From Schaalia odontolytica (GTDB lineage: Bacteria; Actinomycetota; Actinomycetes; Actinomycetales; Actinomycetaceae), in assembly GCF_002847525.1 (NCBI RefSeq), contig NZ_PKKM01000008.1, forward strand, positions 21,494-85,493: 64,000 bases of DNA. The letters run 5' to 3'. The translations under genes were made by a program, and so were the position numbers. Of this stretch, positions 3,172 through 55,256 are shown piece by piece. Within the stretch, counting starts at the first letter, position 1. Every line of letters begins with the position of its first letter. A model generated the notes under the pieces. That model did no database searches and was not told where the DNA came from. It saw only the letters and a program-made list of their open reading frames with translations.

Positions 3172-3224
3172 ACGAGGCCGCGGCACCCACCGCACGCACA
3201 CGCGCGGGGAGGCCACGGCCTCGT
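3172..3224 (-). terminator. Hairpin terminator after clpP2, built from the dispersed GACGAGGCC motif
   Basis: ACGAGGCCGCGGC (3172-3184) pairs with GCCACGGCCTCGT (3212-3224), with one G-T wobble. On the minus strand it is followed by a T-rich stretch (TTGTTTAT). It lies between the clpP2 stop (3241) and the clpX start (2995). Confidence 0.6.
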
Positions 3225-3240
3225 CAGTGACGAAAAGACG

Positions 3241-3885
3241 TCACAGAGCCTTGCGAGACTCCAGCACCTGGTCGATCAGGCCATACTCGGCGGCCTGCGG
3301 GGCGGTGAGGATCTTGTCGCGCTCGATGTCGCGGCGCACCTGCTCCACCGGCTTGCCCGAGTGCTTCGAGATGGTGTCCTCGAGCCACGCGCGCATGCGG
3401 TCGATCTCGTCGGCGACGATCTGAATGTCCGAGGCCTGTCCCTGCATGCCCTCCATCGCCGGCTGGTGGATGAGGACGCGGGCGTTGGGCAGCGCCAGAC
3501 GCTTGCCGGGCGAACCTGCGGCCAGCAGCACGGCGGCAGCCGAGGCGGCCTGGCCCAGGCACACCGTCTGAATCTGCGGCTTGATGTACTGCATCGTGTC
3601 GTAGATGGCGGTCAGCGCCGTGAAGGAGCCGCCGGGCGAGTTGATGTACATAGTGATCAGCGAATCGGGATCCTGTGACTCCAGGACCAGCAGCTGAGCC
3701 ATGACGTCGTCCGCGCTGGCGTCGTCCACCTGCACGCCCAGGAACACGATGCGGTCCTCGAACAGCTTCGTGTAGGGGTTCTGACGGCGGAAACCGTAGG
3801 CCGTGCGCTCCTCGAAGTCGGGCAGCACGTAGCGGGCCTGGGGCATCTGGCGGGCGACCGCCTCAAAGTAGGGCTGGGTGCTCAT
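3241..3885 (-). CDS. clpP2: ATP-dependent Clp protease proteolytic subunit ClpP2
   Basis: 214 residues. Serine protease subunit of the Clp barrel; actinobacteria use two different ClpP rings and this is the second gene of the pair. The catalytic triad is visible as Ser115 (GQAAS), His140 (VLIHQP) and Asp190 (IERD). The oligomerisation and handle region is intact. The start codon overlaps the stop of clpP1 by one base (TGATG), so the two are translated from one mRNA and made in matched amounts. Confidence 0.96.
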
Positions 3886-4496
3886 CAGTTCTCTCCTCGC
3901 GTTCCGATCTCCTGCGGGGTGTCGATCACGCGGTCGACGAAGCCGTACTCGAGGGCTTCCTGCGCCGTGAACCAGTGGTCGCGATCGCCGTCGGCCTCCA
4001 CCTGCTCGACGGTCTTGCCCGTGCGGGACGCGGTGATGGCAGCGAGTTCCTTCTTCATGCCCAGGATCAGGTCCGCGTTAATGCGGATCTCCGTCGCGGA
4101 GCCGCCGGCTCCACCCAGGGGCTGGTGCAGCAGCACGCGGGTGTGGGGCGTGATGTAGCGCTTGCCGGGGGCGCCCGCGGTGAGCAGGAACTGGCCCATC
4201 GACGCGGCCAGGCCCATGCCGACCGTCACGACATCCGGCTTGATGTACTGCATCGTGTCGTAGATGGCCATGCCGGCCGTCACCGAGCCGCCAGGCGAGT
4301 TGATGTACAGGTAGATGTCGCGGTCTGGATCCTCGGCCGCGAGCAGCAGCAGCTGCGCGCAGATCGCGTTCGCATTGTCATCGCGAACCTCGCCGCCCAG
4401 CCAAATAATGCGCTCCTTGAGCAGGCGCTGGTAGACCGAGTCGCCCAGTCCCAGCTGCGAGCCTTCGCCGGCAGCCCCGGTATTGTGCACGCTCAC
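3885..4496 (-). CDS. clpP1: ATP-dependent Clp protease proteolytic subunit ClpP1
   Basis: 203 residues, first gene of the clpP1P2 pair. The triad residues are Ser99 (GLAASMG), His124 (VLLHQP) and Asp173 (DRDHW). It partners ClpP2 and the ClpX/ClpC unfoldases. The start at 4496 follows an AGGAGG-like site. The tig gene lies upstream on the same strand but is separated by 200 bp with a perfect hairpin. Confidence 0.96.
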
Positions 4497-4621
4497 GCGT
4501 ACCTCCTCGTCTGTTCGCGGGCCCAGTCGGCCCCATTGCTGTCAACCGTACCCGCTGTGCGCCCGCTCGTGCGCGCGCCGGGCCGTCGTTTCGCTGTCGG
4601 CACATGCGCCAGACAGATGCA

Positions 4622-4655
4622 CTGAGGGGGTGAGGCTCGCGCCCCACCCCCTCAG
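4622..4655 (-). terminator. Hairpin terminator between tig and clpP1
   Basis: A perfect 11-bp stem, CTGAGGGGGTG (4622-4632) with CACCCCCTCAG (4645-4655), and a 12-nt loop, 42 bp past the tig stop. The T-tract is weak. Confidence 0.65.
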
Positions 4656-4696
4656 CCAAGAGTTAGTCACTCGTCAGCGGGCTCACCCGCCGCGGT

Positions 4697-6016
4697 TCAC
4701 TCCTGCTCGTCGGCAACCTCGGTGATGATCTCCGCGCCCTCTTCGGTGGCGGGATCGGTGCCGAAGAACTTGCTCAGGTCGACGTCGGCGCCGTTGGTGT
4801 CCTTGACGGTGACGACCTTCAGGGCCTCGATGAGGGCCTTGGAGCGACCCAGGTCGGCCACGACGTTGGCCATCTGCTGGGAGGAGGAGAACAGCTGGTT
4901 GATGTCGATGCCGAAGTTCTGCGACATCTGGATCGCGTAGTCGATCAGCTCCTGCTGGGAGACCTGCACGTCGAACTTCTTGCCCAGGGCCTCGGAGAGC
5001 AGCTCGGTGCGGATTTCCTTCTCGACGGCCTCGCGGGCTTCCTTCTTGGCCTTGGGCTTGGCGTCCTCGCCGACGCGGTGCTCGACCTGGTGGTCGACCG
5101 CGGACTCGGGCAGGACGATCTCGACCTTGTCCAGGAGGAGGTCGATGAGGGCGTCGCGCGCGGCGAGGGCCTGCTGGGACTCCTTGGACTGGGCGGCCTG
5201 CTTCTTCAGGTCTTCCTTGAGCTCGTCGATGGTGTCGAACTCGGAGACCATCTGAGCGAAGTCGTCGTCAGCCTTGGGCAGCTCGCGGGTCTTCATAGCC
5301 TTGATGGTGATAGTCACCTCGGCCTCTTCGCCCTCGTGCTCGCCACCCTTCAGCTTGGAGGTGAAGGTGACCTCTTCGCCGGCCTTGGTGCCGCGCAGGG
5401 CGGTGTCCTGGCCGTCGAGCATGGAGCCGGAGCCGATCTCGTAGGAGACGTCGGAGGCGGAGTCAACCTGCTTGCCGTCGATGGTGGCGACCAGGTCGAT
5501 GGTCGCGAAGTCGCCGGTCTTGGCCTTGCGGTTGATGGTCTTGAGGGTGGCGAAGCGGCCGCGCAGGTCCTCGAGTTCCTTCTCGACGTCCTCTTCGGTG
5601 ACCTCGGTGGGCTCGACCTCGACGACGAGCTTCTCGTCGATCTCGGGCAGCTCGAAGTCGGGGACGACGTCAACCTCGGCGGTGAAGACGAGCTGGCCAC
5701 CCTGCGCGCCAGTCACGTTGGGGATCTCGGTGACGTCGACGGTGGGCTGGGCCAGGGGACGCAGGTCATTCTCGCTGACGGCGTCGGAGTAGTGGCCGGG
5801 CAGGACCTGGTTGACGACCTGCTCGATGACGGCGGCGCGGCCGAAGCGCTGGTCGATGATGCGCGGAGGCACGTGGCCCTTACGGAAGCCGGGGATGTTG
5901 ACCTGTCCGGCGATCTCCTTGTACGCCTTGTCCATTTCGGACTTCAGTTCCTCGTAGGGAACCTCAACGGTCAGACGAACCTTGGTGGGCTCGAGGGTTT
6001 CAACGGTGCTCTTCAC
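4697..6016 (-). CDS. tig: Trigger factor, ribosome-associated chaperone and prolyl isomerase
   Basis: 439 residues, normal trigger factor length. The N-terminal ribosome-binding domain carries the GFRKGHVPPRIIDQRFG signature (about residues 43-60). The central FKBP-type prolyl isomerase domain (about 160-245) contains GDFATIDLVATIDGK and the GSGSMLDGQDTAL segment. The C-terminal helical chaperone domain follows and ends in an acidic tail. It acts on nascent chains at the ribosome exit. The tig-clpP1-clpP2-clpX order is the classical bacterial arrangement. Confidence 0.97.
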   Translation of the reverse strand: MKSTVETLEPTKVRLTVEVPYEELKSEMDKAYKEIAGQVNIPGFRKGHVPPRIIDQRFGRAAVIEQVVNQVLPGHYSDAVSENDLRPLAQPTVDVTEIPNVTGAQGGQLVFTAEVDVVPDFELPEIDEKLVVEVEPTEVTEEDVEKELEDLRGRFATLKTINRKAKTGDFATIDLVATIDGKQVDSASDVSYEIGSGSMLDGQDTALRGTKAGEEVTFTSKLKGGEHEGEEAEVTITIKAMKTRELPKADDDFAQMVSEFDTIDELKEDLKKQAAQSKESQQALAARDALIDLLLDKVEIVLPESAVDHQVEHRVGEDAKPKAKKEAREAVEKEIRTELLSEALGKKFDVQVSQQELIDYAIQMSQNFGIDINQLFSSSQQMANVVADLGRSKALIEALKVVTVKDTNGADVDLSKFFGTDPATEEGAEIITEVADEQE

Positions 6017-6233
6017 GTGCGTACGCTCCGTAGTCTACAAATCGGGGGAACGCCCATTTCGGGCGCATAACAACTCGCTTAGTGTACGCCACGACCCCGC
6101 TGATGTCCTCATTCGCGGGCAGTAAGTGGGCATATCCACCCCTCTACGGGCGCTTCGAGTGCGCAACGCCACACGGGTGCACTCCGCTCCCCCTCTGGGA
6201 CGAGGCCGGAGCCGCCCACGCTGCCGGGTGCAC

Positions 6234-6515
6234 TCAGGGGGCGAGGTAGTGGGAGCGCCCTCGCACGACGGCTGCCAGGCGGGCGCGGGGCACGTCGGCG
6301 ACGAGGCGCACGGCGGCGGTGATCTCGCGGTGAATGGCTCGGGCTTCGGCGTCATCTGTCGCGGTAAAGCGCGCGGTGACGCGAGGCTGGCCGGAGGCGA
6401 TGGCGATGTCCCAGGATTCGAGCCGGGTGACGGAGCGGGACGCGGCCTCGACTTCTTCGGGGGCCCGTCCGGGTGCCAGAGTCGTGACCGTCATGATGGT
6501 GCGATAGGACGGCAT
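6234..6515 (-). CDS. Small hypothetical protein
   Basis: 93 residues, no signal peptide or membrane segment. The protein is short, rich in Ala, Arg and Thr, and ends in RGRSHYLAP. A GGGGGAG ribosome site stands 5 nt before the ATG at 6515. It lies between tRNA-Pro (upstream) and tig. I do not recognise the family. It could be a conserved small actinobacterial protein; a chance open frame in GC-rich DNA is the alternative. Confidence 0.5.
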   Translation of the reverse strand: MPSYRTIMTVTTLAPGRAPEEVEAASRSVTRLESWDIAIASGQPRVTARFTATDDAEARAIHREITAAVRLVADVPRARLAAVVRGRSHYLAP

Positions 6516-6535
6516 GGACTCCCCCGGGTTTGTAT

Positions 6536-6640
<105 letters not shown>

Positions 6641-6739
6641 TTGGACTGGTGTCCGGTGCCCCATCATACGGGAGGCGCGTGTAAATGTCGCGCACGTGGA
6701 CAATACCCGCTAGGATCTTCGTGTCCCCTTCGGGGGTAC

Positions 6740-6813: not shown

Positions 6814-6820
6814 GAACTGG

Positions 6821-6852: not shown

Positions 6853-6869
6853 CTGTTAGTCGCTCACGC

Positions 6870-8006: not shown

Positions 8007-8009
8007 CGG

Positions 8010-12883: not shown

Positions 12884-13828
12884 TCACACCAGGACAGACA
12901 CGACCCCGGGGGCGACATCGACGGTGAAGGGGATCGAGGCGATGCGGTCACCATCCGCCATGGCGATCATGCCGGCGGGGGCAGCGAAGGAAACGACGCG
13001 GGCGCTCTCCACCTCAATGGCCGGGTGTGCCTTCGCGCGTCCGGCGACGACGCGGGCAAGCACCGGCAGGGCGCGAGACAGCGACAGGGGGCCGACGTGG
13101 CACACCTCGAGGACGCCGTCACTCATGTCGGAGGATTCCACCAGGGTGATGCCGCCGCCGAAACGTCCGGAGTTGGACACCGAGGCGATCCACCCGCTCA
13201 TGTTGCGCTCGACCCCGTCCACGGTCGCCACAATCTCGGTGGGTTCGTGCGAGGCCAGGGCCGCGAAGGCGCCATACCCGTAGGCCAGCGGACCCGAGGT
13301 GAGAGAGGATTCGTTCGCGAGAATGTTCGCTCGTGCGTCCAGGCCGATCGAGACGATGCCGAGAGCCAGTCGCACGCCCTCGCGCGAACGCACCCACATG
13401 CCGTCCAAGGGACGCACCCGGGAGGCCAGCCAGTCCGAGGAGTCCGCCCCGGCCTCGTCGGAAGAAAAGCCCAGCGGAGCCAGGGAACGCGCGCGCACCA
13501 GCGGGTCCGTGCCGATCCCCAGCGCGCGACACAGGTCGTTGCCGCGACCGCCCGGCATGGGAACGAAGATCGCGTCGGACTCGTGACACCCGCGCGCCAC
13601 GGCGCCCAGGTACCCGTCCCCGCCCAGGGCCGCGACGAAGGATCCGGACGCGACCTCGCCGGCAATCGCCGCAGGGTCGTCGCCGGGCGTCGTCAGGCGA
13701 ACCGCGACCTCCCAACCGCCGCCGCGCAGGATGCGCACGATGCGCGGCCCCAGACGCACGCTGCGCCCGCCCGCCGACATCGACGAGACGAGCAACAAAA
13801 TGCTGCGGCGCACGCCCGATGCGGCCAT
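12884..13828 (-). CDS. Diacylglycerol/lipid kinase family protein
   Basis: 314 residues from ATG 13828. DAGK catalytic-domain signatures: GGDGYLG (in place of GGDGT) and PMPGGRGNDLCRALGI. A YegS/DgkB-like C-terminal domain follows. It likely phosphorylates diacylglycerol or a related lipid and so recycles it to phosphatidic acid beside plsC. An upstream ATG at 13861 exists but would overlap murA by 29 bp; the start 4 bp past the murA stop is more natural and puts the gene in one operon with murA. The changed Thr (GDGY instead of GDGT) is unusual for the family. Confidence 0.8.
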   Translation of the reverse strand: MAASGVRRSILLLVSSMSAGGRSVRLGPRIVRILRGGGWEVAVRLTTPGDDPAAIAGEVASGSFVAALGGDGYLGAVARGCHESDAIFVPMPGGRGNDLCRALGIGTDPLVRARSLAPLGFSSDEAGADSSDWLASRVRPLDGMWVRSREGVRLALGIVSIGLDARANILANESSLTSGPLAYGYGAFAALASHEPTEIVATVDGVERNMSGWIASVSNSGRFGGGITLVESSDMSDGVLEVCHVGPLSLSRALPVLARVVAGRAKAHPAIEVESARVVSFAAPAGMIAMADGDRIASIPFTVDVAPGVVSVLV

Positions 13829-15226: not shown

Positions 15227-15859
15227 TCAGTCGCGAGCGGACACAACTTCTTCCTTGGGCAAGAATTTCGCCGGGAGCGTGCGCGGCTTGAAGGACGGGC
15301 GCGCGGCCTCGTAAGCCGCGATCTCGTCCTCATGACGCAGAGTCAGGGCGATGTCGTCCAGGCCCTCCATGAGGGTCCAGCGCACGTAGTCGTCAATCTG
15401 GAAGGTGCCCGAGATCGCACCGGCGCGCCACGTCTTGTCCTCGAGGGAGACGGTGATCTCGGTGCCAGGCTCGGCCTCGAGGAGCTTCCACAGAGACTCG
15501 CAGTCCTCCTGGGAGATGATGCCGGTGACCAGGCCCTGCTTGCCGGAGTTTCCGCGGAAAATATCGGCGAACTTGGGGGCCAGGACGACGCGGAAGCCGT
15601 AGTCCTTGAGCGCCCACACGGCATGCTCACGCGAGGAACCGGTGCCGAAGTCGGGGCCCGCGATCAGGACGGAGCCGTTCTTGTACGCGTCCTGGTTGAG
15701 GACGAACTCCGGGTCGCCACGCCAGGCGGCGAAGAGGGCGTCCTCGAAGCCCGTGCGGGTCACGCGCTTGAGGTAGACGGCGGGGATGATCTGGTCGGTG
15801 TCGACGTTGGAGCGGCGCAGCGGGACGCCGATGCCGGTGTGGGTGATGAACTTTTCCAT
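15227..15859 (-). CDS. leuD: 3-isopropylmalate dehydratase small subunit
   Basis: 210 residues. With LeuC isomerises 2-isopropylmalate to 3-isopropylmalate in leucine synthesis. Small-subunit swivelling-domain motifs are visible: [17 protein letters not shown] near the N-terminus and [26 protein letters not shown]. It follows leuC after 75 bp. That gap holds a copy of the dispersed GACGAGGCCGGGG motif (15888-15900). Confidence 0.96.
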
Positions 15860-15934
15860 GGGTGGTTGAGTCTTTTCTTCCGTGGGGGACGAGGCCGGGG
15901 CCCTCCCCCGCTGTCGGGTGGCGGTGGGCGGGCC

Positions 15935-21300: not shown

Positions 21301-22411
21301 TCTGGGCGACCGCGATCTGGCCGGTGAGGGCCTCGCGGGCTCCGGCCTCGTCGAGGGAGGCCTTCAGGGCGATGTATCCGTTGAGGTTCGGGTGGGCCGC
21401 GGTCACCTCGGCGGGCAGGTCGCCCGCGACGGTCAGGGCGCTCGTCGAAGCGCCGGTGACGGCGCCATCCGCCAGGCCGGCGCCGCCCTCGGGGGCGGTC
21501 ACCAGCTCATAGGAGAGCTTCGCGGAACCGTCGAGAACCTGCGCGCGAGTCACACCCTCGGGCAGCAGCGAGGTCGGCCACGCGAGAATGTTCGAGGTCA
21601 CCCAGTAGGCGCGCTGCTCGCCAGCGCCCGCGACCGGGGCGTCAGCGCTCGCGATGTTGACCTTGTGCGTCTGAGAATCGTAGGTGAAGGTCACGAGCTT
21701 GTTCGCTTTCGTCGCAAACTGGTAGTTGGCACCGCCGATGGCGCCATCTTGCCCGTAATTCTCGTTGTCGGACCCGCCGATGGCAACCTTGAACTCGTAG
21801 TTGCCCTCAGGCAGCGCGGTGGTGGCGTAGGTGTAGGTCCCGTCCCCCACCGGCTCCATGAGGGGTGCCAGGCATGCGGGCTTCCAGTTATCAGTGCAGC
21901 CCAAGGACTTCTGGAAGGAACCCGGCAGCGTCACCATCTGGTCGGTCGCGGTGTTCCACACGCGGTGCGTCGCGCGGTTGTAGAAGAAGGTGACGGACGT
22001 CGTTTCGCTCAGGGTGTAGGAGATGTTTGCCCCTCCCGCAGCGCCCCCGGCACCAAACGACGTGTCCCACGAGCCGCCCTCGGCGACCTTGTACTGGTAG
22101 TCGCCGGCCGGCAGCGTGAACGTGGCGCTGTACACGCCCGTCGCGTCGCGCGTGAGCGCAGCCTTATCGCAGCCGGGCGCCCAGTCGGCGTCGCATCCCA
22201 TCGCCATGTTGTGGTTACCGGGGATTGTCACCAGCACGTCGGCGGCGGCGCCGGCAGCTCCCGCGTCGGCAGCAGTCGCATCGTTACCCAGGTTTGACGT
22301 TCCTGTCTCGGGCGCGGCCCACGCGGCTGGAAGTACACCTCCCATCAGCGCGATAGCAGCGCCAACGCCCAGCGTTCGGCGCAGCATTGTCCTATTGAGT
22401 CGGTATGTCAC
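18323..22411 (-). CDS. Secreted pullulanase-type alpha-1,6-glucosidase with cell-wall-binding repeats
   Basis: 1362 residues from GTG 22411 (GAGGGAG 6 nt upstream). Signal peptide about 1-33 ending AAWAA. Two related beta-sandwich modules of the starch-binding X25 kind follow (about 50-125 and 140-225: NHNMAMGCDADWAPGC... and SFQKSLGCTDNWKPAC...). Then come a CBM48-like domain and a GH13 catalytic domain with the pullulanase motif YNWGYDP, nucleophile Asp753 (GFRFDLMG), acid Glu790 (YGEGWN) and Asp923 (HDNE). The last 180 residues are aromatic repeats of about 20 residues (GWxxxGxxWYYLxxxGxMATGW), as in choline-binding proteins. It debranches glycogen, starch or pullulan at the cell surface. 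No LPXTG motif is seen. Confidence 0.93.
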   Translation of the reverse strand: MTYRLNRTMLRRTLGVGAAIALMGGVLPAAWAAPETGTSNLGNDATAADAGAAGAAADVLVTIPGNHNMAMGCDADWAPGCDKAALTRDATGVYSATFTLPAGDYQYKVAEGGSWDTSFGAGGAAGGANISYTLSETTSVTFFYNRATHRVWNTATDQMVTLPGSFQKSLGCTDNWKPACLAPLMEPVGDGTYTYATTALPEGNYEFKVAIGGSDNENYGQDGAIGGANYQFATKANKLVTFTYDSQTHKVNIASADAPVAGAGEQRAYWVTSNILAWPTSLLPEGVTRAQVLDGSAKLSYELVTAPEGGAGLADGAVTGASTSALTVAGDLPAEVTAAHPNLNGYIALKASLDEAGAREALTGQIAVAQKSGESINAFTGVQIAPVLDSLYAAKATQASYGVGWNEAGNPTFALWAPTAKNVTLLSWNTSTPRGSDADVQGDGLRTAAVRGEDGRWSVDNAAGDIHEGAQYLWEVSVYVPETGKVETNLVTDPYSVALTVDSTRSVAVNMDNPSIAPSLWTDSKAPVIADDAQRSIYELHVRDFSAADTSVPEDMRGTYMAFTQFQSNGMRHLAELSRAGMNTVHLLPTFDIATIPEKRADQKTPAIPENAGPASEEQQAAVAAVADQDAYNWGYDPLHWMAPEGSYATSSQQNGGGRVREFRSMVGGLHSIGMQVVLDQVYNHTPAAGQSAHSVLDRVVPGYYQRLNATGGVETSTCCSNVATENAMSEHLMIDSMIHWAKYYHVDGFRFDLMGHHPAEEMKRAKAALSSLTLEKDGVDGSRLYIYGEGWNFGEVANNALFTQATQGQLDGTGIGAFNDRLRDAVHGGGPFDEDHRVLQGFGSGAFSDFNGLDTRSEADRRADYLHRVDLVKLGLAGNLKDYTLTTYDGKTVSGAQLDYNGQGAGFASQPAENVNYVDAHDNETLFDLVTYKMPADAPMDHRVRMSLISQASVALSQSPSFWASGTEMLRSKSLDRDSYNSGDHFNAIDWSMRDNGFGRGLPVKSKNGAAWDHMRPLLENPDLKPTPEQIDTSSEIAMDFLRVRSSSRLFTLGSADLVRSKVTFPNSGEGAVDGTIVMLINDEAGAGNDIDAKLDGALVVFNATGESVTTAVEGLSGRVFKLHEAQANGSDETVKGASFDAKTGSVTVPARTVAVFTQAAGDRIDPTVTPEPDPAAAQWVASGDGRWWLRYPDGTYPANERVVRDGVTYSFDANGWMKTGWQVEDGAWRYYAPSGAMATGWTAVGGTWYYLDPDTGAMATGWLKDGDTWYYLNASGAMASGWVNLGGAWFYLNSDGSMATGWAVVGGQWYYLTESGQMAIGWVKDGGSWYFCHPSGAMATGRVVIGGTAYTFDGSGRWVA

Positions 22412-22980: not shown

Positions 22981-23023
22981 AGCCCCGACCTCGTCCCTCA
23001 AACAGGGCGACGAGGCCGGGGCT
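22981..23023 (-). terminator. Terminator of gltX built from an inverted pair of the dispersed motif
   Basis: AGCCCCGACCTCGTC (22981-22995) pairs with GACGAGGCCGGGGCT (23009-23023), one mismatch, extended by CCT/AGG. It lies 12 bp past the gltX stop. Confidence 0.75.
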
Positions 23024-25857: not shown

Positions 25858-25875
25858 TCTTCATCTCACGCGAGA

Positions 25876-25923
25876 CGAGGCCGTGGCCGGGAGATGGGTC
25901 ACCATCTCCCGGCCACGGCCTCG
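25876..25923. terminator. Long palindromic bidirectional terminator with two copies of the dispersed motif
   Basis: Perfect 22-bp arms (25876-25897 and 25902-25923) around a 4-nt loop; each arm starts or ends with the CGAGGCCGTGGCC motif. It sits between convergent genes. Confidence 0.85.
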
Positions 25924-25944
25924 CGTGTGTCTGATTCTGTGCGC

Positions 25945-26742
25945 TTATGCTCCCAGGGCCGCCTCGATACCAGCGACCACGGTCTGGCGCGCCGCCGAGG
26001 CAGCCTCGACAACAGCAGTCGGATCCGTCGGGGCGTCGGCAAAGGACAGGTCGGAGACGACCGACATGCCGGCGACGCGCACGCCCAGGGCATGCAGCGT
26101 GATGGCCTCCATGACGGTCGACATGCCCACGCAGTCCACGCCCAGGCTCGCGAGGATGCGGGTCTCGGCCATGGTCTGGTACTCGGGGCCGCGCAGGATC
26201 GCGTAAGTACCCTCGCGCTGGCACACCCCGCGCAGCCCCTGCGTCATCTGGGCATCCCACACTGCCGACACGTCCAGGAAGAGCGGCCCATCGAAGGGCG
26301 AGGTGCCACTGAAGTTCACGTGGTCGGTGATCGCCATGACGTCGCCTAGGTTCCAGGGCTTCAGGCAGCCGTTCGCGTTCGTGAGGACCGCGCGGCTGAT
26401 CCCCGCCGCAACGGCACCGCGGGCCAGGGCCGTGACGGGGCGGGCGCCCAGCCCCTCGTAGAGGTGCGTGCGGCCCGTGGCCACGAGGACCACTCCCCCG
26501 CACGCCTCGTAGGCGCGCAGCTCGCCACCATGCCCGTCCGCAACCGGCGCGACGACGCCAGGGATATCGCCCAGCGGCACGGTGGCCACGGGGGCTCCCC
26601 AGGCCTCGTCGAGAGCCTCGGCCAAGCCGGACCCAAGCACTACGAGCGCATCCGGGCGTCCCGCAAGAGAGGTGAGGACCCGGGCGCCGGCCACGGCCTC
26701 GTCGTCGAGGAGAGCGGTGGTGAAGCGCGGGTCGACGCTCAC
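25945..26742 (-). CDS. Purine-nucleoside phosphorylase
   Basis: 265 residues from GTG 26742. Cleaves purine nucleosides with phosphate for salvage. Trimeric PNP signatures: LVVLGSGLAEAL (phosphate loop), GRTHLYEG, LTNANG and EYQTMAETRILASLGVDCVGMSTVMEAI with the purine-binding Glu and Met. The Asn/Asp specificity position lies in VVSDLS. The start overlaps the codB-like permease stop as GTGA, so the base/nucleoside permease and phosphorylase form one salvage operon. Confidence 0.9.
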   Translation of the reverse strand: MSVDPRFTTALLDDEAVAGARVLTSLAGRPDALVVLGSGLAEALDEAWGAPVATVPLGDIPGVVAPVADGHGGELRAYEACGGVVLVATGRTHLYEGLGARPVTALARGAVAAGISRAVLTNANGCLKPWNLGDVMAITDHVNFSGTSPFDGPLFLDVSAVWDAQMTQGLRGVCQREGTYAILRGPEYQTMAETRILASLGVDCVGMSTVMEAITLHALGVRVAGMSVVSDLSFADAPTDPTAVVEAASAARQTVVAGIEAALGA

Positions 26743-30656: not shown

Positions 30657-30911
30657 AGGAGCCTCCCGGGGTGTCAAAAGACGAGGCCGGGTGAAGTGCG
30701 CCGAGCCTCGCGCGCTGTCGCGGGACGCACCCGCGCGTTGTAATGGGACCCGTTCATCTTGCCACAGGGCTCCTCACCCGGCAGGCGACGTCTCGCCACG
30801 CGCACGCCCGCGCTGTTTCCGGACGAGGCGCCCCGGCCTCGTCGATGAGCTGCGGGAAGAGCCCGGCGGTGCGGGGACGCAGACGTGGGCGCACTCTGGG
30901 ACAATGGGAGC

Positions 30912-39390: not shown

Positions 39391-39429
39391 AGCCCGCCCC
39401 GGCCTCGTCGAAACGACGCCGAAGCGGGC
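39391..39429. terminator. Imperfect hairpin between marC and the lipoate ligase, containing the dispersed motif
   Basis: GCCCGC...GGC..CTCGTCG pairs imperfectly with CGACG..CCG..GCGGGC; the motif copy CCCCGGCCTCGTCG is at 39397-39410. It lies between convergent genes. Confidence 0.5.
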
Positions 39430-39445: not shown

Positions 39446-40495
39446 TCAGGGGATGCGGTGCACCCACTCCTCGCGCGCGAACTTCGTCTCGCAGCGCTTG
39501 CGTGCGACCTCGAGGTCCGCCTCGGTGATGGTGCCGACGCTCGCGTTGTACTTCTCCTTGAAGTGATCGAAGAACACCTGCAGGATCTCTTCGCGCGCCA
39601 TGCCGGTCTGGGAGCGCATGGGATCCACGCGCTTGACGGCGCTGCGGGTGCCCTTGTCGCGGATCTTCTCCATGCCGATGCGCAGGACTTCGTTCATCTT
39701 GATGGCGTCGATGTCGTAGGCCATGGTCACGTGGTGGACCATGTAGCCGTTGGCCCAGCGCTTCTGCGCGGCGCCGCCGATCTTGCCGAACTCGGAGGCG
39801 ATGTCGTTGAGCGGCACGTACTTGGCCTTGATGCCCAGCTTTTCGAGGACCTCCATGACCCACTGATCGAGGTACGGGTAGGCCTGCTCGAAGCTCATTC
39901 CCTCCACGAGGGCGGTGGGGATGACAAGCGAGTAGGTGATGCAGTTGCCGGGCTCCATGAACATGGCGCCGCCACCGGTGACGCGCCGCGACACGGTGAT
40001 GCCGTATCGATCCACGCCGTCCTGTTGGATTTCGTTTTGGTAGGACTGGAAGGAGCCGATGACGACCTGGGGGCCGTTCCACTCCCACAGGCGCATGAAG
40101 GGCTTGCGGCGCCCCGCGGCCACGTCTTCGACCAGGGTTTCGTCCATGGCGACGTTGATCATCGGGTCGACGACGGGGCCGTGGATGACGTCGAAGTCGA
40201 TGTCGTCCCACGACAGGGCGGCGCCCAGCGCGCGGCGTACGGCGATGCCGACGGCCTCGGGGGTCACGCCCATGAGGGTGTCTCCCTCGTGGAGGGCGGC
40301 CTCCACGCGCGCGGCCAGATCCTTCGCGCTCGACGAGGCCGGGGCCCCTTCGAGGGACGCGGTGATCCGGGTGAGCGCGTCGTCGGGGTCGAGGAAGAAG
40401 TCACCGGACACGCTCACGCGCGCGAGGCGATCCTCCTCCACGTCGGTGTCGACGACGACGAGCTTTCCTCCGGGGACTTTGTATTCTCCATGCAT
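39446..40495 (-). CDS. Lipoate--protein ligase A with accessory domain at the N-terminus
   Basis: 349 residues from ATG 40495. The first 90 or so residues (MHGEYKVPGGKLVVVDTDVEED...) resemble the accessory domain that is C-terminal in E. coli LplA and a separate LplB protein in Thermoplasma. The catalytic LplA/LipB domain follows, with MRLWEWNGPQVVIGSFQ, RRVTGGGAMFMEPGNCITYSL and the lysine motif FGKIGGAAQKRWANGYMVHHVTM. It attaches lipoate to 2-oxoacid dehydrogenases or GcvH. TACAAT ends 7 nt before this ATG (leaderless). A GTG at 40522 overlapping the ilvD stop as GTGA is the alternative start. Confidence 0.88.
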   Translation of the reverse strand: MHGEYKVPGGKLVVVDTDVEEDRLARVSVSGDFFLDPDDALTRITASLEGAPASSSAKDLAARVEAALHEGDTLMGVTPEAVGIAVRRALGAALSWDDIDFDVIHGPVVDPMINVAMDETLVEDVAAGRRKPFMRLWEWNGPQVVIGSFQSYQNEIQQDGVDRYGITVSRRVTGGGAMFMEPGNCITYSLVIPTALVEGMSFEQAYPYLDQWVMEVLEKLGIKAKYVPLNDIASEFGKIGGAAQKRWANGYMVHHVTMAYDIDAIKMNEVLRIGMEKIRDKGTRSAVKRVDPMRSQTGMAREEILQVFFDHFKEKYNASVGTITEADLEVARKRCETKFAREEWVHRIP

Positions 40496-40518: not shown

Positions 40519-42366
40519 TCACGCCCAGTCGGGCAGGACGCGCACGCCGCCCTTGTCGGCGGATGCGGCGAGCATGCCGTAGACGCGCAGGGCGTCGGAG
40601 ACTTGGCGGGCGCGAGGCTTAGAGGGCTTCCACGGGGCGGCGCCCTTTTCGGCGCGGCGGCGCTCGAGTTCCTCGTCGCTCACGTTGGCGCGCAGGACGC
40701 GGTTGTTGACGTCGATTTCGATCTCGTCGCCGGTGCGCACGAGGCCGATCGCGCCGCCGGCCGCGGCCTCGGGCGAGATGTGACCGATGGAGATGCCGGA
40801 CGTGCCGCCGGAGAAGCGGCCGTCGGTGATGAGGGCGCACTTCTTGCCCAGGCCCAGGCCCTTGAGGTAGGAGGTCGGGTAGAGCATTTCCTGCATGCCG
40901 GGGCCGCCCTTGGGGCCCTCGTACTGGATGACGACGACGTCGCCTTCCTTAACTTGCTTGCTGAGGATGGCCTCGACGGCTTCCTCCTGGGATTCGACGA
41001 CGAAGGCCTTGCCGACGAAGTGGAAGAGGGACTCGTCGATGCCGGCGGACTTGATGATCGCGCCGTTGGCGGCGATGTTGCCGTAGAGGACCGCGAGGCC
41101 GCCGTCCTTCGTGTAGGCGTGCTCGACGGAGCGGATGCAGCCGGCCTCGGAGTCGGTGTCGAGGGACTCGAAGAGGTTGGCGGTCGAGAATGCCTGGGTG
41201 GTGCGCACGCCGCCGGGGGCGGCGAGGAAGCGGTGCTTGGCCTCGTCGGTGGCGCTCCCGCTGCGCACGTCCCAGGCGCCCAGCCAGTCGGCGAGGTTGT
41301 CGGAGTGGACGGAGCGGACGTCGCGGTTGAGCAGGCCGGCGCGGTCAAGCTCGCCGAGCAGGGCGGGGATGCCGCCGGCGCGGTGGACGTGCTCGATGTG
41401 GTAGGTCGTGGAGTTGGGGGCCACCTTGCACAGGCAGGGCACGCGGCGCGAGATCGCGTCGATATCGTCGAGCGTGAAGTCGACACCGGCCTCGTTGGCG
41501 ATGGCGAGGATGTGCAGGACGGTGTTGGTGGAACCGCCCATGGCCACGTCCAGGCTCATGGCGTTCTCGAAGGCGGCCTTGGTGGCGATGGAACGCGGCA
41601 GGACCGAGTCGTCCTCGTTGTCATAGTAGGCGCGGCACATGTCGACGATGCGCGTGCCGGCCTCGGTGAAGAGCTTCTTGCGTTCGATCTGGGTGGCGAG
41701 GGTGGTGCCGTTGCCGGGCAGGGCCAGGCCGATGGCCTCGTTGAGGCAGTTCATGGAGTTCGCGGTGAACATGCCTGCGCAGGAGCCGCAGGTGGGGCAC
41801 GCGTTGGCTTCGATGCTGGCCAGCTGGTTGTCGCTGACGGAGTCGTCAACGGCCATGACCATGGCGTCGATGAGGTCGAGGCGGTGCTCGACGACGCCTT
41901 CGACGGCAGCGCCAGATTCCATGGGGCCGCCGGACACGAAGATGGTCGGGATGTTCAGGCGCATGGCGGCCAGGAGCATGCCGGGGGTGATCTTGTCGCA
42001 GTTGGAGATGCACACGAGGGCGTCGGCGCGGTGCGCGTTGACCATGGTTTCGACGCAGTCGGCGATGAGGTCGCGGCTGGGCAGGGAGTAGAGCATACCG
42101 TCGTGGCCCATGGCGATGCCGTCGTCGACGGCGATCGTGTTGAATTCCTTGGCGACGCCGCCGGCTGCTTCGATGGCTCCGGCGACGAGGTCACCCATGT
42201 TCTTGAGGTGCACGTGGCCGGGCACGAACTGGGTGAAGGAGTTGGCGATGGCGATGATCGGCTTGCCGAAGTCGCCGTCCGTCATGCCGGTGGCGCGCCA
42301 CAGGGCGCGAGCTCCGGCCATGTTGCGGCCTTGGGTGGATGTTGCCGAGCGCAGCGGGCGACTCAT
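40519..42366 (-). CDS. ilvD: Dihydroxy-acid dehydratase
   Basis: 615 residues from ATG 42366, with AAAGG upstream. Dehydrates dihydroxy-isovalerate or -methylvalerate in Val, Ile and Leu synthesis. Fe-S/metal ligands: Cys123 with the carbamylated-lysine motif ISNCDK, and Cys190/193/196 in [31 protein letters not shown] is near the C-terminus. A longer frame starting at 42444 has no homology and no site. Cytoplasmic. Confidence 0.97.
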
Positions 42367-42688
42367 GATGTGCCTTTCTTTTGCCTTGTAATGACTCAAC
42401 AGTAGGAGCGTGAGCGCTGCGTTTCCGTGCGGGTTTCGTCTCATGGACGAGGCCGGGGCTGGGTGGGGGCGGTTTTCGCGCGGTATTTCGGGGGCTGTAG
42501 CGAGTGGGTCGCCGTGTCAGTGGATGGACGCTTGTGGGCGTGATTGCAAGGAAAACGCAAGGGGTGCGTGCGTGAATTAGTGTCTGGCCAGATGAGTGGT
42601 TGATCGCATTGGTCATGCTTCGGACATTCGGCCTCGTTCTCGACACGCGAAACGTAGGCTGAGGGCACAGTGAAGAGAAAGGACTGCG
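42367..42688. other. 322-bp divergent promoter region between ilvD and the methionine-synthase-like gene
   Basis: No convincing gene. It contains one copy of the dispersed motif, GACGAGGCCGGGGCT (42446-42460), and a perfect 10-bp palindrome TCTGGCCAGA (42583-42592), about 96 bp before the plus-strand start codon, that could be an operator. No T-box or SAM riboswitch pattern was recognised. Confidence 0.5.
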
Positions 42689-43882
42689 ATGACCATTCGC
42701 ACCACTCATGTTGGTTCCCTGCCCCGTACCCCCGAGCTGCTTAAGGCAAACGCCGCGCACCGCGAGGGTTCCCTGAGCGACGCTGATTTCACCTCTGTGC
42801 TGCAGGCTGAGGTTGATGGCGTTGTGAAGCGTCAGGCTGAGATTGGCCTGGATATCGTCAACGACGGCGAGTACGGCCACGCGATGCTCGACACGGTTGA
42901 TTACGGCGCGTGGTGGACGTATTCCTTCTCGCGTTTTGGCGGTCTGTCGTTTGAGAACTCGGGTGGCTTTGAGCTGCGTCCCCCGGCTGGCCGCGATGGC
43001 CGCCTGGCTTTCTCGTCGTTTGCTGAGCGCCGCGACTGGCAGCGTTTCGCGGACGCGTACGGTGACCCGGAGTCGGGTATTCAGATCGTGAGCGACAACA
43101 AGGTCTTGTTCCCGGCGATCGTGGACGAGCTGACCTACATCGGTGCTGAGGCCGTGGAGCGCGATATCGCGGGCGTGAAGCACGCGCTGGAGGCTGTGGG
43201 GAAGCCCGTGTCGGATGGTTTCGTGGCGGCGATTTCGCCGGGTTCGGCGGCTCGCGTGGGCAACGCGTTCTACGAGGATGACGAGGCCGTGGTGTGGGCG
43301 TGCGCGGACGTGCTGCGCGAGGAGTACAAGCGCATTACGGACGCGGGCCTGACGGTGCAGATTGACGCGCCGGATATCGCGGAGGGCTGGGATCAGATGA
43401 ACCCTGAGCCGTCCGTTGAGGATTACCGCGCGTTCTCTCGCGTGCGTATCGACGCGCTGAACCACGCGCTGGAGGGCATTGACCCGTCTCTGGTGCGTTT
43501 CCACGTGTGCTGGGGTTCGTGGCACGGCCCGCACACGACGGATATTGCGTTCAAGGACATCGTGGATCTGGCCCTGCTGGTCAACGCGAACGGACTGACG
43601 TTCGAGGCGGCGAATGCTCGCCACGCGCACGAGTGGACGATCTGGCGCGACATCGAACTGCCTGAGGGCAAGTACCTGATCCCGGGCGTGGTGTCGCACT
43701 CGACGAACGTTGTGGAGCACCCGGAGCTGGTGGCTCAGCGTATCCGCCAGTTCGCGGACATTGTGGGCGATGAGCGTGTCGTGGCGTCGACGGACTGTGG
43801 CCTGGGCGGCCGCATCTACCCGTCGATCGCGCGGGCGAAGCTGGAGGCTCTTACCGAGGGCGCTCGTCTCGCATCGAAGTGA
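42689..43882 (+). CDS. Short cobalamin-independent methionine synthase-like protein (MetE C-terminal domain)
   Basis: 397 residues, equal to the catalytic C-terminal half of MetE only. MTIRTTHVGSLPRTPELL at the start, DIVNDGEYG, then the zinc-site region FHVCWGSWHGPH and the last cysteine in ASTDCGLGGR. Stand-alone forms (YxjG/YxjH-like) use alternative methyl donors. GAAAGGA lies before the ATG. Codon use (many GCT, GGT, CGT) differs from neighbours and hints at high expression. It ends in a strong terminator. Confidence 0.87.
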   Translation: MTIRTTHVGSLPRTPELLKANAAHREGSLSDADFTSVLQAEVDGVVKRQAEIGLDIVNDGEYGHAMLDTVDYGAWWTYSFSRFGGLSFENSGGFELRPPAGRDGRLAFSSFAERRDWQRFADAYGDPESGIQIVSDNKVLFPAIVDELTYIGAEAVERDIAGVKHALEAVGKPVSDGFVAAISPGSAARVGNAFYEDDEAVVWACADVLREEYKRITDAGLTVQIDAPDIAEGWDQMNPEPSVEDYRAFSRVRIDALNHALEGIDPSLVRFHVCWGSWHGPHTTDIAFKDIVDLALLVNANGLTFEAANARHAHEWTIWRDIELPEGKYLIPGVVSHSTNVVEHPELVAQRIRQFADIVGDERVVASTDCGLGGRIYPSIARAKLEALTEGARLASK

Positions 43883-49745: not shown

Positions 49746-49825
49746 AGGTCGAATCCTATCGGTATCGGGCACGTCAACACGCGAGGGACGAGGCCGTGGC
49801 CCCATCCCCCGCGCGCTCGCGTCTG

Positions 49826-53187: not shown

Positions 53188-53224
53188 TGTGCTCCTATCA
53201 ACATGACACACACGAGTACACAAC

Positions 53225-53243
53225 CAAGGATAGCCTTAGTTAG
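53225..53243 (-). promoter_or_regulatory. DtxR/IdeR-like iron box upstream of the ABC transporter pair
   Basis: CAAGGATAGCCTTAGTTAG agrees with the 19-bp consensus TTAGGTTAGSCTAACCTAA at about 12 positions, including the AGGnTAGCCTnA core. It overlaps a minus-strand -10-like TATCCT (53233-53228). Confidence 0.5.
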
Positions 53244-53298
53244 GTTCTGACACCACTGTCACTTTGGGGCAATTTCGCATCGTGACCGCGTAAAGAAA

Positions 53299-53329
53299 CC
53301 ACGGCCTCGTACAATCGACGAGGCCGTGG
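53299..53329. terminator. Hairpin from an inverted pair of the dispersed motif, after ilvE
   Basis: CCACGGCCTCGT (53299-53310) and ACGAGGCCGTGG (53318-53329), perfect 12-bp stem with a 7-nt loop, 20 bp past the ilvE stop; A-rich on the far side. Confidence 0.75.
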
Positions 53330-53348
53330 CTCCCTCAAGCGATCATGC

Positions 53349-54497
53349 TCAGACCAGGCGGTACGTCCAGCCGTAGGGATCCTCGGCGCGACCCCACTGG
53401 ATGTCGGTCAGGTGCTTGTGGATCTCGCGGGTCTTCTCCCCGACCTCGATCTCCACGTCGAAGTCGTCGCCAGCCAGGCGCGTGATCGGGGTGACCACGG
53501 CGGCCGTGCCACAGGCGAAGACCTCGGCGACAGCGCCCGAGCGGATGCCATCCACGACCTCGGACAGGGCGATCTTCTCCTCACGAACATCGACGCCCTG
53601 GTCGCGCAGCATGCGCAGGATCGCGCTGCGCGTGCCACCCTCGAGGATGACGCCGGTGAGCTCGGGGGTGCGGATGGTTCCATCAGCCATGACGACGAAC
53701 ATGTTCATGCCGCCCAGCTCCTCGAGGTACTTGCCCTCGTAGGTGTCCAGGAAGCAGACCTGGGAGAAGCCCTTGGCCTCGGCCTGGATCTGGGGCAGCA
53801 GGGAGGCTGCGTAGTTGCCGCCCGCCTTGGCGCTGCCGGTGCCGCCGGGGCCGGCGCGGTGGTACTCGCGTTCCACCCAGATGGCCACGCCCGACAGGCC
53901 GCCCTTGAAGTAGGGGCCCGACGGCGAGCCGATGACGTAGTAGTCGACGACGCCGGCGGGGTGGACGCCCACGAACTCCTCGGAGGCGAACATGAAGGGA
54001 CGCAGGTAGAGGGAAGAACCGTCGACCTCGGGAACCCACTTGACGTCCGCGCGCACGTAGTCCACGAGGGAGGCCACGAAGTCCTCGCGGCTCAGCTCGG
54101 GCAGGGCCAGGCGGCGGGCCGAGTGGTTCAGGCGCGCGGCGTTGTAGCCGGGGCGGAAGGTCCACACGGAGCCGTCCTCGCGCTTGTAGGCCTTGATGCC
54201 CTCGAACACGGACTGGCAGTAGTGGAAGACGGAGGCGCCGGGGGTCAGCTCGAGCGGGCCGTAGGGGATGACGCCGCGGTCATCCCAGCCGCCCTCGCGG
54301 GTCCAGCGCATGTGGGCCATGTGGTCCGTGAACTTCTTGCCGAAGGCCAGGGTCGACATGATCTCGTTGTACTCCTCCGGCGTCGCCGGGTGAGCGTTGG
54401 GGGTCAGGGGGAAACGACCGGCCAGCTCGTCGGCGGCGGGAAGTACCAGGTCGCCGGCAGCCTCAAGTTCCGTGGGGGTGTGCTGCGTCGATGCCAT
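53349..54497 (-). CDS. ilvE: Branched-chain amino acid aminotransferase
   Basis: 382 residues, class IV PLP aminotransferase that makes Leu, Ile and Val. FHYCQSVFEGIKAY, RPGYNAARLNHSARRLALPE, the Schiff-base Lys224 in TGSAKAGGNYAASLLPQ and the LEELGGMNMFVV / EGGTRSAIL motifs are all present. GGAGA lies before the ATG at 54497. A single gene, far from ilvD and leuCD. Confidence 0.96.
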   Translation of the reverse strand: MASTQHTPTELEAAGDLVLPAADELAGRFPLTPNAHPATPEEYNEIMSTLAFGKKFTDHMAHMRWTREGGWDDRGVIPYGPLELTPGASVFHYCQSVFEGIKAYKREDGSVWTFRPGYNAARLNHSARRLALPELSREDFVASLVDYVRADVKWVPEVDGSSLYLRPFMFASEEFVGVHPAGVVDYYVIGSPSGPYFKGGLSGVAIWVEREYHRAGPGGTGSAKAGGNYAASLLPQIQAEAKGFSQVCFLDTYEGKYLEELGGMNMFVVMADGTIRTPELTGVILEGGTRSAILRMLRDQGVDVREEKIALSEVVDGIRSGAVAEVFACGTAAVVTPITRLAGDDFDVEIEVGEKTREIHKHLTDIQWGRAEDPYGWTYRLV

Positions 54498-54695
54498 GAG
54501 GTCTCCTGTCGTGGTTTTTCACAAATATGAAGCCAGAATATGCCCGCCGTCCGCAATGTGGCCGATTGATTTCGGCATGTGACCCACTCCCCCGCCCCCT
54601 GTGGACGTTCTCACCCCGTCACCCCTCACCCATCGCAGTCCCGATTCCTGCGACCTGTCACCGCACACACCAGCCCGACAGGATACGATCAACGC

Positions 54696-55193
54696 ATGAC
54701 GACTCTGCCTGACGCCCTTGCCTCCGCCCTGCCCTCCCGCGAGCGCCGCTCCCCCGGCCTGGAGCTCGAGGACGGGCGCTGGATGGTGGCCGCGAAGTCG
54801 GGCCTGTACGTCTTCGGTGCCGAGGCCTCGTCCGGCGAGGGGGAGCCCACCCCCGAGGTGTTCCCCTGGTACGACGTGGCGCGGGCGCGCTGGGAGGCCG
54901 AGGGCTCGCTCTTCGCCCTGGAGTGGGTGGATCCGGCCCGCCCGGCCCTGGCGGGGCGCGGGAAGGGCGATCCGGAGGATTTCATGCGTCATACAAGCGA
55001 GTTCGTGAACCGCTCGATCGTCCTGCACTCCCAGGTGGAAGTCGGCAACGGCACGACGGTGACGGCGTGGGTGCGCCGCGGCGAGGACGGGCTTTTCTCC
55101 GTGCTGACGGCCGACGGGCCGCTGGATGCCGACGGGCAGCGAGAGGCGGACGCCCTGGAGGCCCGCGTGCGCGACGCGGTCGGTCTCGACTGA
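54696..55193 (+). CDS. Conserved small protein of unknown function
   Basis: 165 residues from ATG 54696, no signal peptide. The protein has a WYDVARARWEAEGSLFALEWVDP segment, then FVNRSIVLHSQVEVGNGTTVTAWVRRGEDG, giving an alpha/beta pattern. TACGAT ends 6 nt before the ATG (leaderless); a longer frame starting at 54579 overlaps the promoter. Convergent with luxS. I do not recognise a functional family. Confidence 0.75.
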   Translation: MTTLPDALASALPSRERRSPGLELEDGRWMVAAKSGLYVFGAEASSGEGEPTPEVFPWYDVARARWEAEGSLFALEWVDPARPALAGRGKGDPEDFMRHTSEFVNRSIVLHSQVEVGNGTTVTAWVRRGEDGLFSVLTADGPLDADGQREADALEARVRDAVGLD

Positions 55194-55256
55194 TCGACGA
55201 GGCCGGGGCTCCCCCCTCGGGGCACGCTCCCCCTCGCATGCATCCTTAGACGACAA

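What the first reader, a model, noticed from the sequence alone, without database searches (positions are those of the whole stretch)
3172..55210. Dispersed intergenic motif GACGAGGCCGKGGC, often as inverted pairs that make terminators
The same 12-15-mer recurs in the gaps between genes at about 3172/3212, 6199, 15888, 23009, 25874/25911, 30680, 30831, 39397, 42446, 49787, 53299/53318 and 55196, in both orientations. At 3.2, 23.0, 25.9 and 53.3 kb two copies face each other and form hairpin terminators; the rest are single copies. A few also lie in genes (26689, 40332, 43280). A 10-mer such as GACGAGGCCG should appear well under once per 64 kb at this GC content. This layout is the one seen for uptake sequences in Neisseria and Haemophilus, where inverted pairs act as terminators. 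It could instead be a REP-like element or a chromosome-organising motif.
Basis: partly seen in the sequence, partly recalled or inferred. Interest (0 to 1): 0.7.

Follow-up and report, generated by a model that had tools for sequence, protein, structure and literature searches.

The report
Uptake-sequence-like motif in Schaalia chromosomes
A 9-14 letter DNA tag is written about a thousand times across the chromosomes of an oral actinobacterium and its close relatives, with related species using different spellings of it, much like the self-recognition tags that Neisseria and Haemophilus use when they take up DNA; nobody is known to have tested whether it does that job here.

Summary
GACGAGGCCG occurs 21 times in the window against 0.83 expected. 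The window resembles Schaalia odontolytica. The nearest genome held has 279 exact GACGAGGCCGKGGC, reversed control 1; the core ACGAGGCCG reaches 848-1131 copies in eight near relatives. Codon use does not explain it: 95 14-mers in genes against about 7 after synonymous shuffling, and 77 between genes against 0.016 expected. Copies show no replichore bias. Losses between species are mainly substitutions. Inverted pairs are about twofold in excess and mostly lie in gaps downstream of a gene. Related species carry dialects (GACGAGGNCG, ATTGACGAGGGYGAC) that cluster on a single-gene tree. comEC and comEA are present almost throughout, with Tad-like ATPase matches. Best reading: a DNA-uptake-sequence-like self-recognition tag, a kind named only in Neisseriaceae and Pasteurellaceae in the papers I saw. 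Uptake is untested, no receptor is known, and motif-free genomes have the same machinery. A chromosome-organising protein site is the main rival, because density falls from origin to terminus.

The parts
3171..3184 (+). near copy AACGAGGCCGCGGC; left arm of inverted pair 1, gap between two - strand genes
   Evidence: hairpin -47.7 kcal/mol, z -6.9
3212..3225 (-). GACGAGGCCGTGGC; right arm of inverted pair 1
6199..6212 (+). GACGAGGCCGGAGC, single, between genes
13446..13459 (-). GACGAGGCCGGGGC inside a gene; core kept in G103
15888..15901 (+). GACGAGGCCGGGGC, single, between genes; core kept in G103
21339..21352 (-). GACGAGGCCGGAGC inside a gene; core kept in G103
22982..22995 (-). near copy GACGAGGTCGGGGC; arm of inverted pair 2
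   Evidence: hairpin -35.5 kcal/mol, z -5.4
23009..23022 (+). GACGAGGCCGGGGC; arm of inverted pair 2, gap between - strand genes; core kept in G103
25874..25887 (+). GACGAGGCCGTGGC; left arm of inverted pair 3 between convergent genes; core kept in G103
   Evidence: hairpin -59.7 kcal/mol, z -10.8
25912..25925 (-). near copy CGCGAGGCCGTGGC; right arm of inverted pair 3
26690..26703 (-). GACGAGGCCGTGGC inside a gene; one core mismatch in G103
30680..30693 (+). GACGAGGCCGGGTG between divergent genes; core kept in G103
30830..30843 (-). GACGAGGCCGGGGC between divergent genes; core kept in G103
39396..39409 (-). GACGAGGCCGGGGC between convergent genes; one core mismatch in G103
40332..40345 (+). 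GACGAGGCCGGGGC inside a gene, antisense; core kept in G103
42446..42459 (+). GACGAGGCCGGGGC between divergent genes; core kept in G103
43280..43293 (+). GACGAGGCCGTGGT inside a gene; core kept in G103
49787..49800 (+). GACGAGGCCGTGGC between genes; core kept in 8 of 9 aligned relatives
53298..53311 (-). near copy TACGAGGCCGTGGT; arm of inverted pair 4; core kept in G103
   Evidence: hairpin -31.2 kcal/mol, z -7.5
53317..53330 (+). GACGAGGCCGTGGC; arm of inverted pair 4, gap between - strand genes; core kept in G103
55196..55209 (+). GACGAGGCCGGGGC between convergent genes
57270..57283 (+). CACGAGGCCGGGGC inside a gene, antisense; core kept in G103
57972..57985 (-). TACGAGGCCGGGGC inside a gene; core kept in G103

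Best explanation
The motif is a genome-wide self-recognition tag of the DNA-uptake-sequence kind. A cell-surface or pilus-associated protein of the competence apparatus (here probably a Tad/Flp-type pilus with ComEA and ComEC, as in Micrococcus luteus) would bind DNA carrying GACGAGGCCGKGGC more readily. Such DNA is then taken up and recombined, and tags that arise by point mutation spread by repeated transformation. Because the tag is tolerated best between genes, copies pile up there, and pairs in inverted orientation are co-opted as transcription terminators. When the receptor drifts, the tag drifts with it, giving clade dialects around a fixed CGAGG core. Shown: enrichment, sharp motif, change mainly by substitution, excess of inverted pairs in gaps, dialects that cluster on a tree, presence of com genes. 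Inferred: binding by an uptake receptor, biased uptake, spread by transformation, terminator activity, and that the pilus is of the Tad type.
For: Copy number: 279 14-mers in G001 vs 1 reversed control; 245-350 in six genomes of the genus in the family scan, 0-10 in the 139 genomes of other genera; 848-1131 ACGAGGCCG in eight near relatives, reversed controls 38-49. Sharp edges: no position outside G-ACGAGGCCG-KGGC holds more than 0.16 bits, and single-mismatch variants are nearly absent at the CGAGG positions. Not codon use: 50 sense + 45 antisense 14-mers in genes vs 5.0 + 2.0 after synonymous shuffles; between genes 77 vs 0.016. No orientation bias by replichore. Evolves in place: core kept in 40 of 55 and 40 of 58 aligned cases vs 41.6% of matched 9-mers; gapped losses 1 of 55 and 3 of 58 vs 3%. 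Inverted pairs under 100 bp: 35 vs 15.5 expected (maximum 25 in 200 placements); direct pairs 18 vs 15.7; of the 35, 18 in tandem gaps, 10 convergent, 1 divergent, 6 coding. Dialects; labels on the tree need 4 changes vs shuffled mean 10.7, 0 of 200 as low. Machinery: comEC in 188 of 190 family genomes, comEA at E <= 0.001 in 33 of 35 genus genomes, TadE/G-like Pfam in 9 of 10. DUS dialects follow phylogeny and inverted pairs associate with terminators (PMC3630211, passages); tad and comEA/EC genes serve transformation in M. luteus (PMC4322843, passages).
Against: No uptake or transformation data; three searches listed no paper that by title or abstract reports natural transformation of Schaalia, and the S. 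odontolytica transposon paper uses electrocompetent cells (PMC12369343, passages). comEC and Tad-like ATPase matches occur in nearly every family genome searched, motif or not, and G140 has comEC and comEA but no motif. comEA passes its curated cut-off in only 12 of 35. No PilT over its cut-off in 190 genomes, and I did not confirm a whole tad operon: the one stretch read around a Tad hit (L282) showed none to my gene caller. No receptor identified. Density falls from origin to terminus (rho -0.41, p 0.001). No depletion in genes of atypical codon use (0.36, 0.41, 0.36, 0.34 per kb by quartile), though under-representation in the accessory genome is described for DUS (PMC5031613, passages). 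For the 9-mer core alone the excess in genes is smaller: 364 vs 139 by codon shuffle. In the window-G103 pair, gene copies are kept no more often than random 9-mers (9 of 15 vs 59%). The uptake sequences named in the papers I saw are all in Gram-negative families.
Confidence: 0.57

Rival explanations
1. The motif is the binding site of a chromosome-organising or nucleoid-occlusion protein (in the manner of Noc, SlmA or a nucleoid-associated protein) that marks the origin-proximal chromosome; dialects reflect co-evolution of the protein and its site.
For: Density falls from the assumed origin to the terminus (Spearman rho -0.41, p 0.001; t -3.2 with GC and codon typicality in the model). A strict CGAGG core fits a DNA-binding protein. 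Motif-free G140 keeps com genes.
Against: About a thousand copies spread over the whole chromosome, terminus included (2-7 per 20 kb in the eight stretches from 1.18 to 1.49 Mb), and hundreds inside genes. Excess of inverted over direct close pairs. Known sites of this kind are far fewer (recalled). The origin position was read from GC skew only.
Confidence: 0.2
2. A recombination or repair signal (Chi-like), or a replication-linked signal (KOPS-like), accumulated because it promotes recombination of the DNA that holds it.
For: High copy number, present in and between genes; would also spread by gene conversion (inference).
Against: No strand bias by replichore (orientation counts by 250 kb), 9-14 bases rather than a short octamer, gap preference and inverted pairs, dialects within one genus.
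Confidence: 0.08
3. A favoured terminator stem, or codon use of Asp-Glu-Ala-Gly/Val, with no other function.
For: Four hairpins in the window; 46 of 50 sense 14-mers in genes are in the frame that reads D-E-A-G/V; codon shuffles alone give about 139 of the 364 gene cores.
Against: At most 70 of 532 core copies in the G043 sample belong to close inverted pairs of exact cores; pairs with an imperfect partner, as two of the four in the window, are missed by that count, so the true share is higher. Antisense 14-mers are nearly as frequent as sense ones and both exceed synonymous shuffles. One search lists no T-run terminator at the two pairs in its range.
Confidence: 0.04
4. A REP-like or other mobile repeat spread by a transposase.
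For: Preference for gaps between genes and inverted pairs.
Against: Only 14 bases with no conserved flanks; 95 of 172 14-mers inside genes, mostly in one reading frame per orientation (46 of 50 sense, 39 of 45 antisense); losses by gap not clearly more frequent than control. Other dispersed repeats in the same genome (AACCTATCC, GGAATTGCA) are almost wholly intergenic.
Confidence: 0.03

Closest known systems
DNA uptake sequence (DUS) of Neisseriaceae, read by the minor pilin ComP
   Same: Non-palindromic tag of about 12 bases, hundreds to thousands of copies, in genes and gaps, inverted pairs associated with terminators, strict inner core, dialects that follow the species tree (PMC3630211 and PMC5031613, passages)
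   Different: Different sequence (apart from a heptamer AGGCCGT shared by the T form and AG-DUS, recalled, probably chance); Gram-positive host; no ComP-type receptor sought or found, no PilT over its cut-off; uptake not tested
Uptake signal sequence (USS) of Pasteurellaceae (Hin and Apl types)
   Same: 9-base motif, about 200-800 copies per Mb (PMC12616744, passages), similar to about 340-450 per Mb of ACGAGGCCG in the eight nearest genomes here
   Different: Different sequence and host; the receptor there is also only predicted
Flp/Tad-pilus-dependent natural transformation of Micrococcus luteus
   Same: Actinobacterial; comEA-comEC plus tad genes (PMC4322843, passages)
   Different: The term 'uptake sequence' does not occur in that paper
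HIP1 of cyanobacteria (recalled)
   Same: Very abundant short motif in and between genes
   Different: HIP1 is a palindromic octamer; this motif is not palindromic and makes inverted pairs
REP/BIME elements (recalled)
   Same: Dispersed, gap-preferring, inverted pairs
   Different: Shorter, about half inside genes, changes mainly by substitution

Membership tests
DNA uptake sequence (DUS/USS) | Short non-palindromic motif in hundreds to thousands of copies, far above expectation | tested here: met
DNA uptake sequence (DUS/USS) | Found in genes and gaps, both orientations, no replichore bias | tested here: met
   (G043, 61 stretches of 20 kb, 48% of the chromosome)
DNA uptake sequence (DUS/USS) | Inverted pairs associated with gene ends/terminators | tested here: met
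   for excess and position; terminator activity itself not tested, and one search lists no T-run terminator at the two pairs in 22-31 kb
DNA uptake sequence (DUS/USS) | Dialects that follow the phylogeny | tested here: met
   tree of one protein, 26 of 35 genomes plus the window; the two GYG-labelled rows do not cluster
DNA uptake sequence (DUS/USS) | Naturally competent host with uptake machinery | tested here: inconclusive
   comEC, comEA and Tad-like matches present, but also in motif-free genomes; comEA over its cut-off in 12 of 35; competence not reported in the listings searched
DNA uptake sequence (DUS/USS) | Preferential uptake of motif-bearing DNA | not testable with these tools
   needs an uptake assay
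DNA uptake sequence (DUS/USS) | Dedicated receptor protein | not tested
   no candidate isolated
DNA uptake sequence (DUS/USS) | Under-represented in accessory DNA | tested here: inconclusive
   no depletion by codon typicality; fewer copies near the terminus; no usable prophage read
REP-like mobile repeat | Extragenic, spread as an inserted unit | tested here: not met
Chi/KOPS-type oriented signal | Orientation bias along replichores | tested here: not met
Noc/SlmA-type site | Excluded from the terminus region (feature recalled) | tested here: inconclusive
   thinned but not excluded

The most novel reading that the evidence does not exclude
The first DNA-uptake-sequence system outside the Gram-negative families: Actinomycetaceae of the Schaalia group tag their chromosomes with CGAGG-centred motifs read by a Tad/Flp-type competence pilus, and clade-specific spellings limit gene exchange between sister species. 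Dialects would have arisen from a looser ancestral GACGAGGNCG.
Probability: 0.5. Interest if true: 0.88.

Novelty: new variant of a known kind. Interest (0 to 1): 0.78.

Why it matters
Uptake tags are known from two Gram-negative families, with unrelated sequences. A third origin, in monoderm actinobacteria with a different pilus class, would show that self-tagging of DNA is a general outcome of biased uptake and would give a system in which receptor and tag can be traced through many sister species. It could also explain how recombination stays within species in a group of oral bacteria, and would give a practical handle: adding the tag to DNA could make these hosts of Saccharibacteria easier to study genetically.

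Tried and rejected
Codon use as a full explanation (rejected). Terminator stem only (rejected). REP/mobile repeat (rejected). Chi/KOPS (rejected). A dialect in motif-free G140: TGAGGCAAAGG looked promising, but 8 of 13 TGAGGCAAA copies are one 30-base tandem repeat. Excess of GACGAGGGYG over the reversed control in G003 and G039 (other genera): the ACGAGG words show no clear excess over synonymous shuffles or Markov expectation there, though CGAGGNCG is somewhat high (G039 sense 150 vs 116, sd 8; G003 gaps 12 vs 6.2). Conservation at orthologous sites between dialect groups: no clear signal (4 of 11 and 4 of 27 kept; null 15.8%). Prophage as a motif-free control: portal matches in 3 of 10 genomes, only the G103 place was read, and it is a short remnant with no core in 472001-476000; the phage collection gave two small hits for one 8 kb query. 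Depletion in atypical genes: none. The first organism search used a gene that is conserved very widely and did not name the genus; a protein search did. The logo print at the end failed with a format error; only the counts printed before it are used.
Full report
1. What was checked. The window (66.6% GC) holds 21 copies of GACGAGGCCG against 0.83 expected from dinucleotide shuffles, 13 exact GACGAGGCCGKGGC, and 34 copies of the core ACGAGGCCG. Half of the cores lie in gaps, which are about 15% of the window by my gene caller. Genes throughout are from my own simple codon-score caller, not a published one.

2. Where it comes from. The window's own assembly is not held. The nearest genome held, G001, shares 25% of sampled 31-letter words. 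The CydC protein of the window is 97-98% identical to two proteins that sources name Schaalia odontolytica.

3. Genome scale. G001 has 147 + 132 exact 14-mers; the reversed pattern has 1. In a family scan of 151 genomes, 12 are of this genus: eight have 61-350 copies and four have 0-15; the 139 of other genera have 0-10. The 9-mer ACGAGGCCG occurs 22-1131 times in the 35 genus genomes, reversed control 20-75; the lowest, G140, is not above its control (22 vs 25).

4. The motif itself. I sampled 61 stretches of 20 kb (48%) of the complete G043 chromosome. It holds 532 cores; 528 of them, with full flanks, give a logo with sharp edges: G at 66% before the core, then K (77%), G (72%), G (79%), C (61%), and at most 0.16 bits at any position beyond. 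Among single-mismatch variants of the two 14-mers, the five CGAGG positions hold 4 and 6 variants in total, against 98 and 74 perfect copies, whereas the outermost positions tolerate change.

5. Not codon use or composition. In 917 called genes of G043, 95 full motifs are seen (50 sense, 45 antisense) against 5.0 and 2.0 in 100 synonymous shuffles within genes. For the core alone the excess is smaller (188 vs 90 sense, 176 vs 49 antisense), so part of the gene cores is codon use. The reversed core control is close to its shuffle (9 vs 11.3, 8 vs 8.0). Between genes, 77 full motifs stand against 0.016 expected (order-2 Markov), and 167 cores against 4.3.

6. Layout. Cores occur at 0.36 per kb in genes and 0.59-0.96 per kb in divergent, convergent and tandem gaps (0.23 in gaps cut by a stretch end). 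Orientation shows no replichore bias, and counts per 20 kb are close to Poisson (variance 10.0, mean 8.7). There are 35 inverted neighbours under 100 bp, against 15.5 expected when copies are replaced within their class (maximum 25 of 200), and 18 direct against 15.7. Of the 35, 18 lie in tandem gaps, 10 in convergent gaps, 1 in a divergent gap and 6 in genes. These counts need an exact core on both sides; two of the four window pairs would be missed. The four window pairs fold with z -5.4 to -10.8. Density falls with distance from the assumed origin (rho -0.41, p 0.001), which I cannot explain fully and count for the rival.

7. How it evolves. Between G043 and near relatives (34 alignments of at least 300 columns, 88.5% identity) the core is kept in 40 of 55 and 40 of 58 cases, counted from either side, against 41.6% of 9-mers of equal GC; gapped losses are 1 and 3, against 3% of controls. 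Several of these alignments cover the same region in different species, so the cases are not independent. Between the window and G103, 28 of 34 cores align: 10 of 13 gap copies are kept (54% of random gap 9-mers), and 9 of 15 gene copies (59% of random), so the excess in that pair is in gaps only. At 49787 the core is kept in 8 of 9 relatives while flanks change. This fits tags that arise and die by substitution.

8. Dialects. G164 carries ATTGACGAGGGYGAC and G158 GACGAGGGCG. Against 20 synonymous shuffles, ACGAGGGCG in G158 is 59 vs 22.7 in genes and 12 vs 0.56 (Markov) in gaps; G164 is enriched for ACGAGGGCG (17 vs 5.3; gaps 6 vs 0.28) and ACGAGGGTG (12 vs 2.8; gaps 4 vs 0.26); G071, of another genus, is enriched for CGAGGNCG (177 vs 39 in genes, 14 vs 2.05 in gaps). 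G155 carries all four NCG spellings (127 vs about 58 in genes, 10 vs 2.9 in gaps). G140 shows no excess, G115 and G173 little, and G039 and G003 no clear one for the ACGAGG words though CGAGGNCG is somewhat high. Whole-genome counts of ACGAGGCCG, GACGAGGGYG and GACGAGGWCG were set on a tree of one protein: 27 rows, that is the window and 26 of 35 genomes; G010, G115, G126, G140, G157, G167, G170, G171 and G173 gave no long enough match in the loci held. Labels are mine (one spelling at least 1.8 times the others); for G152, G162 and G165 the GYG count was missing and taken as 0. The CCG spelling marks a 9-row clade (support 100/100) that holds the window, and a separate 4-row clade (100/100); all labels need 4 changes against a shuffled mean of 10.7 (0 of 200 as low), while the two GYG rows alone do not cluster. 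In some searches the raw counts of other genera also exceed the reversed control, which is a poor control at high GC; I rely on the shuffles.

9. Machinery. comEC is found in 188 of 190 family genomes. comEA is found at E <= 0.001 in 33 of 35 genus genomes, the two misses being incomplete assemblies (70% and 88%), but over the curated cut-off in only 12. The PilT profile is met over its cut-off in 0 of 190, with weaker matches in 189; that these are Tad/CpaF-type ATPases is my reading, supported by the TadE/G-like Pfam in 9 of 10 genomes, and I did not confirm a whole tad operon. M. luteus needs tad and comEA/EC genes for transformation (PMC4322843, passages). Since motif-free genomes have the same genes, this permits but does not single out the uptake reading.

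10. What is known. The papers seen name uptake tags only in Neisseriaceae and Pasteurellaceae (PMC5031613 and PMC12616744, passages), with dialects and inverted pairs at terminators (PMC3630211, passages). Searches for uptake sequences with Actinomyces, Actinobacteria, Actinomycetaceae or Schaalia terms listed no report in this clade, and a search for the motif letters listed only papers unrelated by title, 7 of 8 shown. The library lacks most subscription papers.

11. Verdict. The repeat is real, lineage-specific, not a by-product of codons or terminators alone, and resembles an uptake sequence in most comparisons that sequence allows. That it works as one is the best-supported guess (0.57), not a result.

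Noticed in passing
L091, L120 and other G043 stretches (e.g. L091:616-654, 15388-15449): A second dispersed repeat, AACCTATCC(GGAT) in short arrays of about 19-base period, 74 copies in 1.22 Mb, all 74 between genes; AACCTATCC does not occur in the window.
   Followed up: partly
L110:11638-11920, L110:18057-18312, L111:977-8283 (G043): A third repeat around GGAATTGCA with TTTCAAA...TTGAAA-like flanks, 66 copies in 1.22 Mb, 64 between genes; looks REP- or MITE-like.
   Followed up: partly
window 53267-53286: Alignment with G103 breaks here (about 360 extra bases in G103), and G010 and G126 break at nearly the same place with about 2.1 kb extra; the break lies some 12-31 bases before the inverted motif pair at 53298-53330.
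   Followed up: no
L227:12858-13068 (G140): A 30-base tandem repeat around TGAGGCAAAGG in one stretch of G140, possibly a repeat-bearing protein.
   Followed up: partly
G103:C1 about 472-475 kb (L280, L281); G156:C2 about 578 kb; G151:C1 about 1677 kb: Phage portal matches in 3 of 10 genomes; the G151 match has stops inside. Around the G103 match, the only one read, no full prophage was seen.
   Followed up: partly
window 40519-42444: The encoded protein has its best listed relatives in Rothia (83-84%) and then widely across Actinobacteria and Proteobacteria at 65-74%, a flat pattern (near records may have been left out of the list, which kept 80).
   Followed up: no
G043 chromosome, 1.18-1.49 Mb: Motif density drops to a little over half of the mean around the GC-skew maximum, presumed terminus (about 4.9 vs 8.7 cores per 20 kb).
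   Followed up: partly
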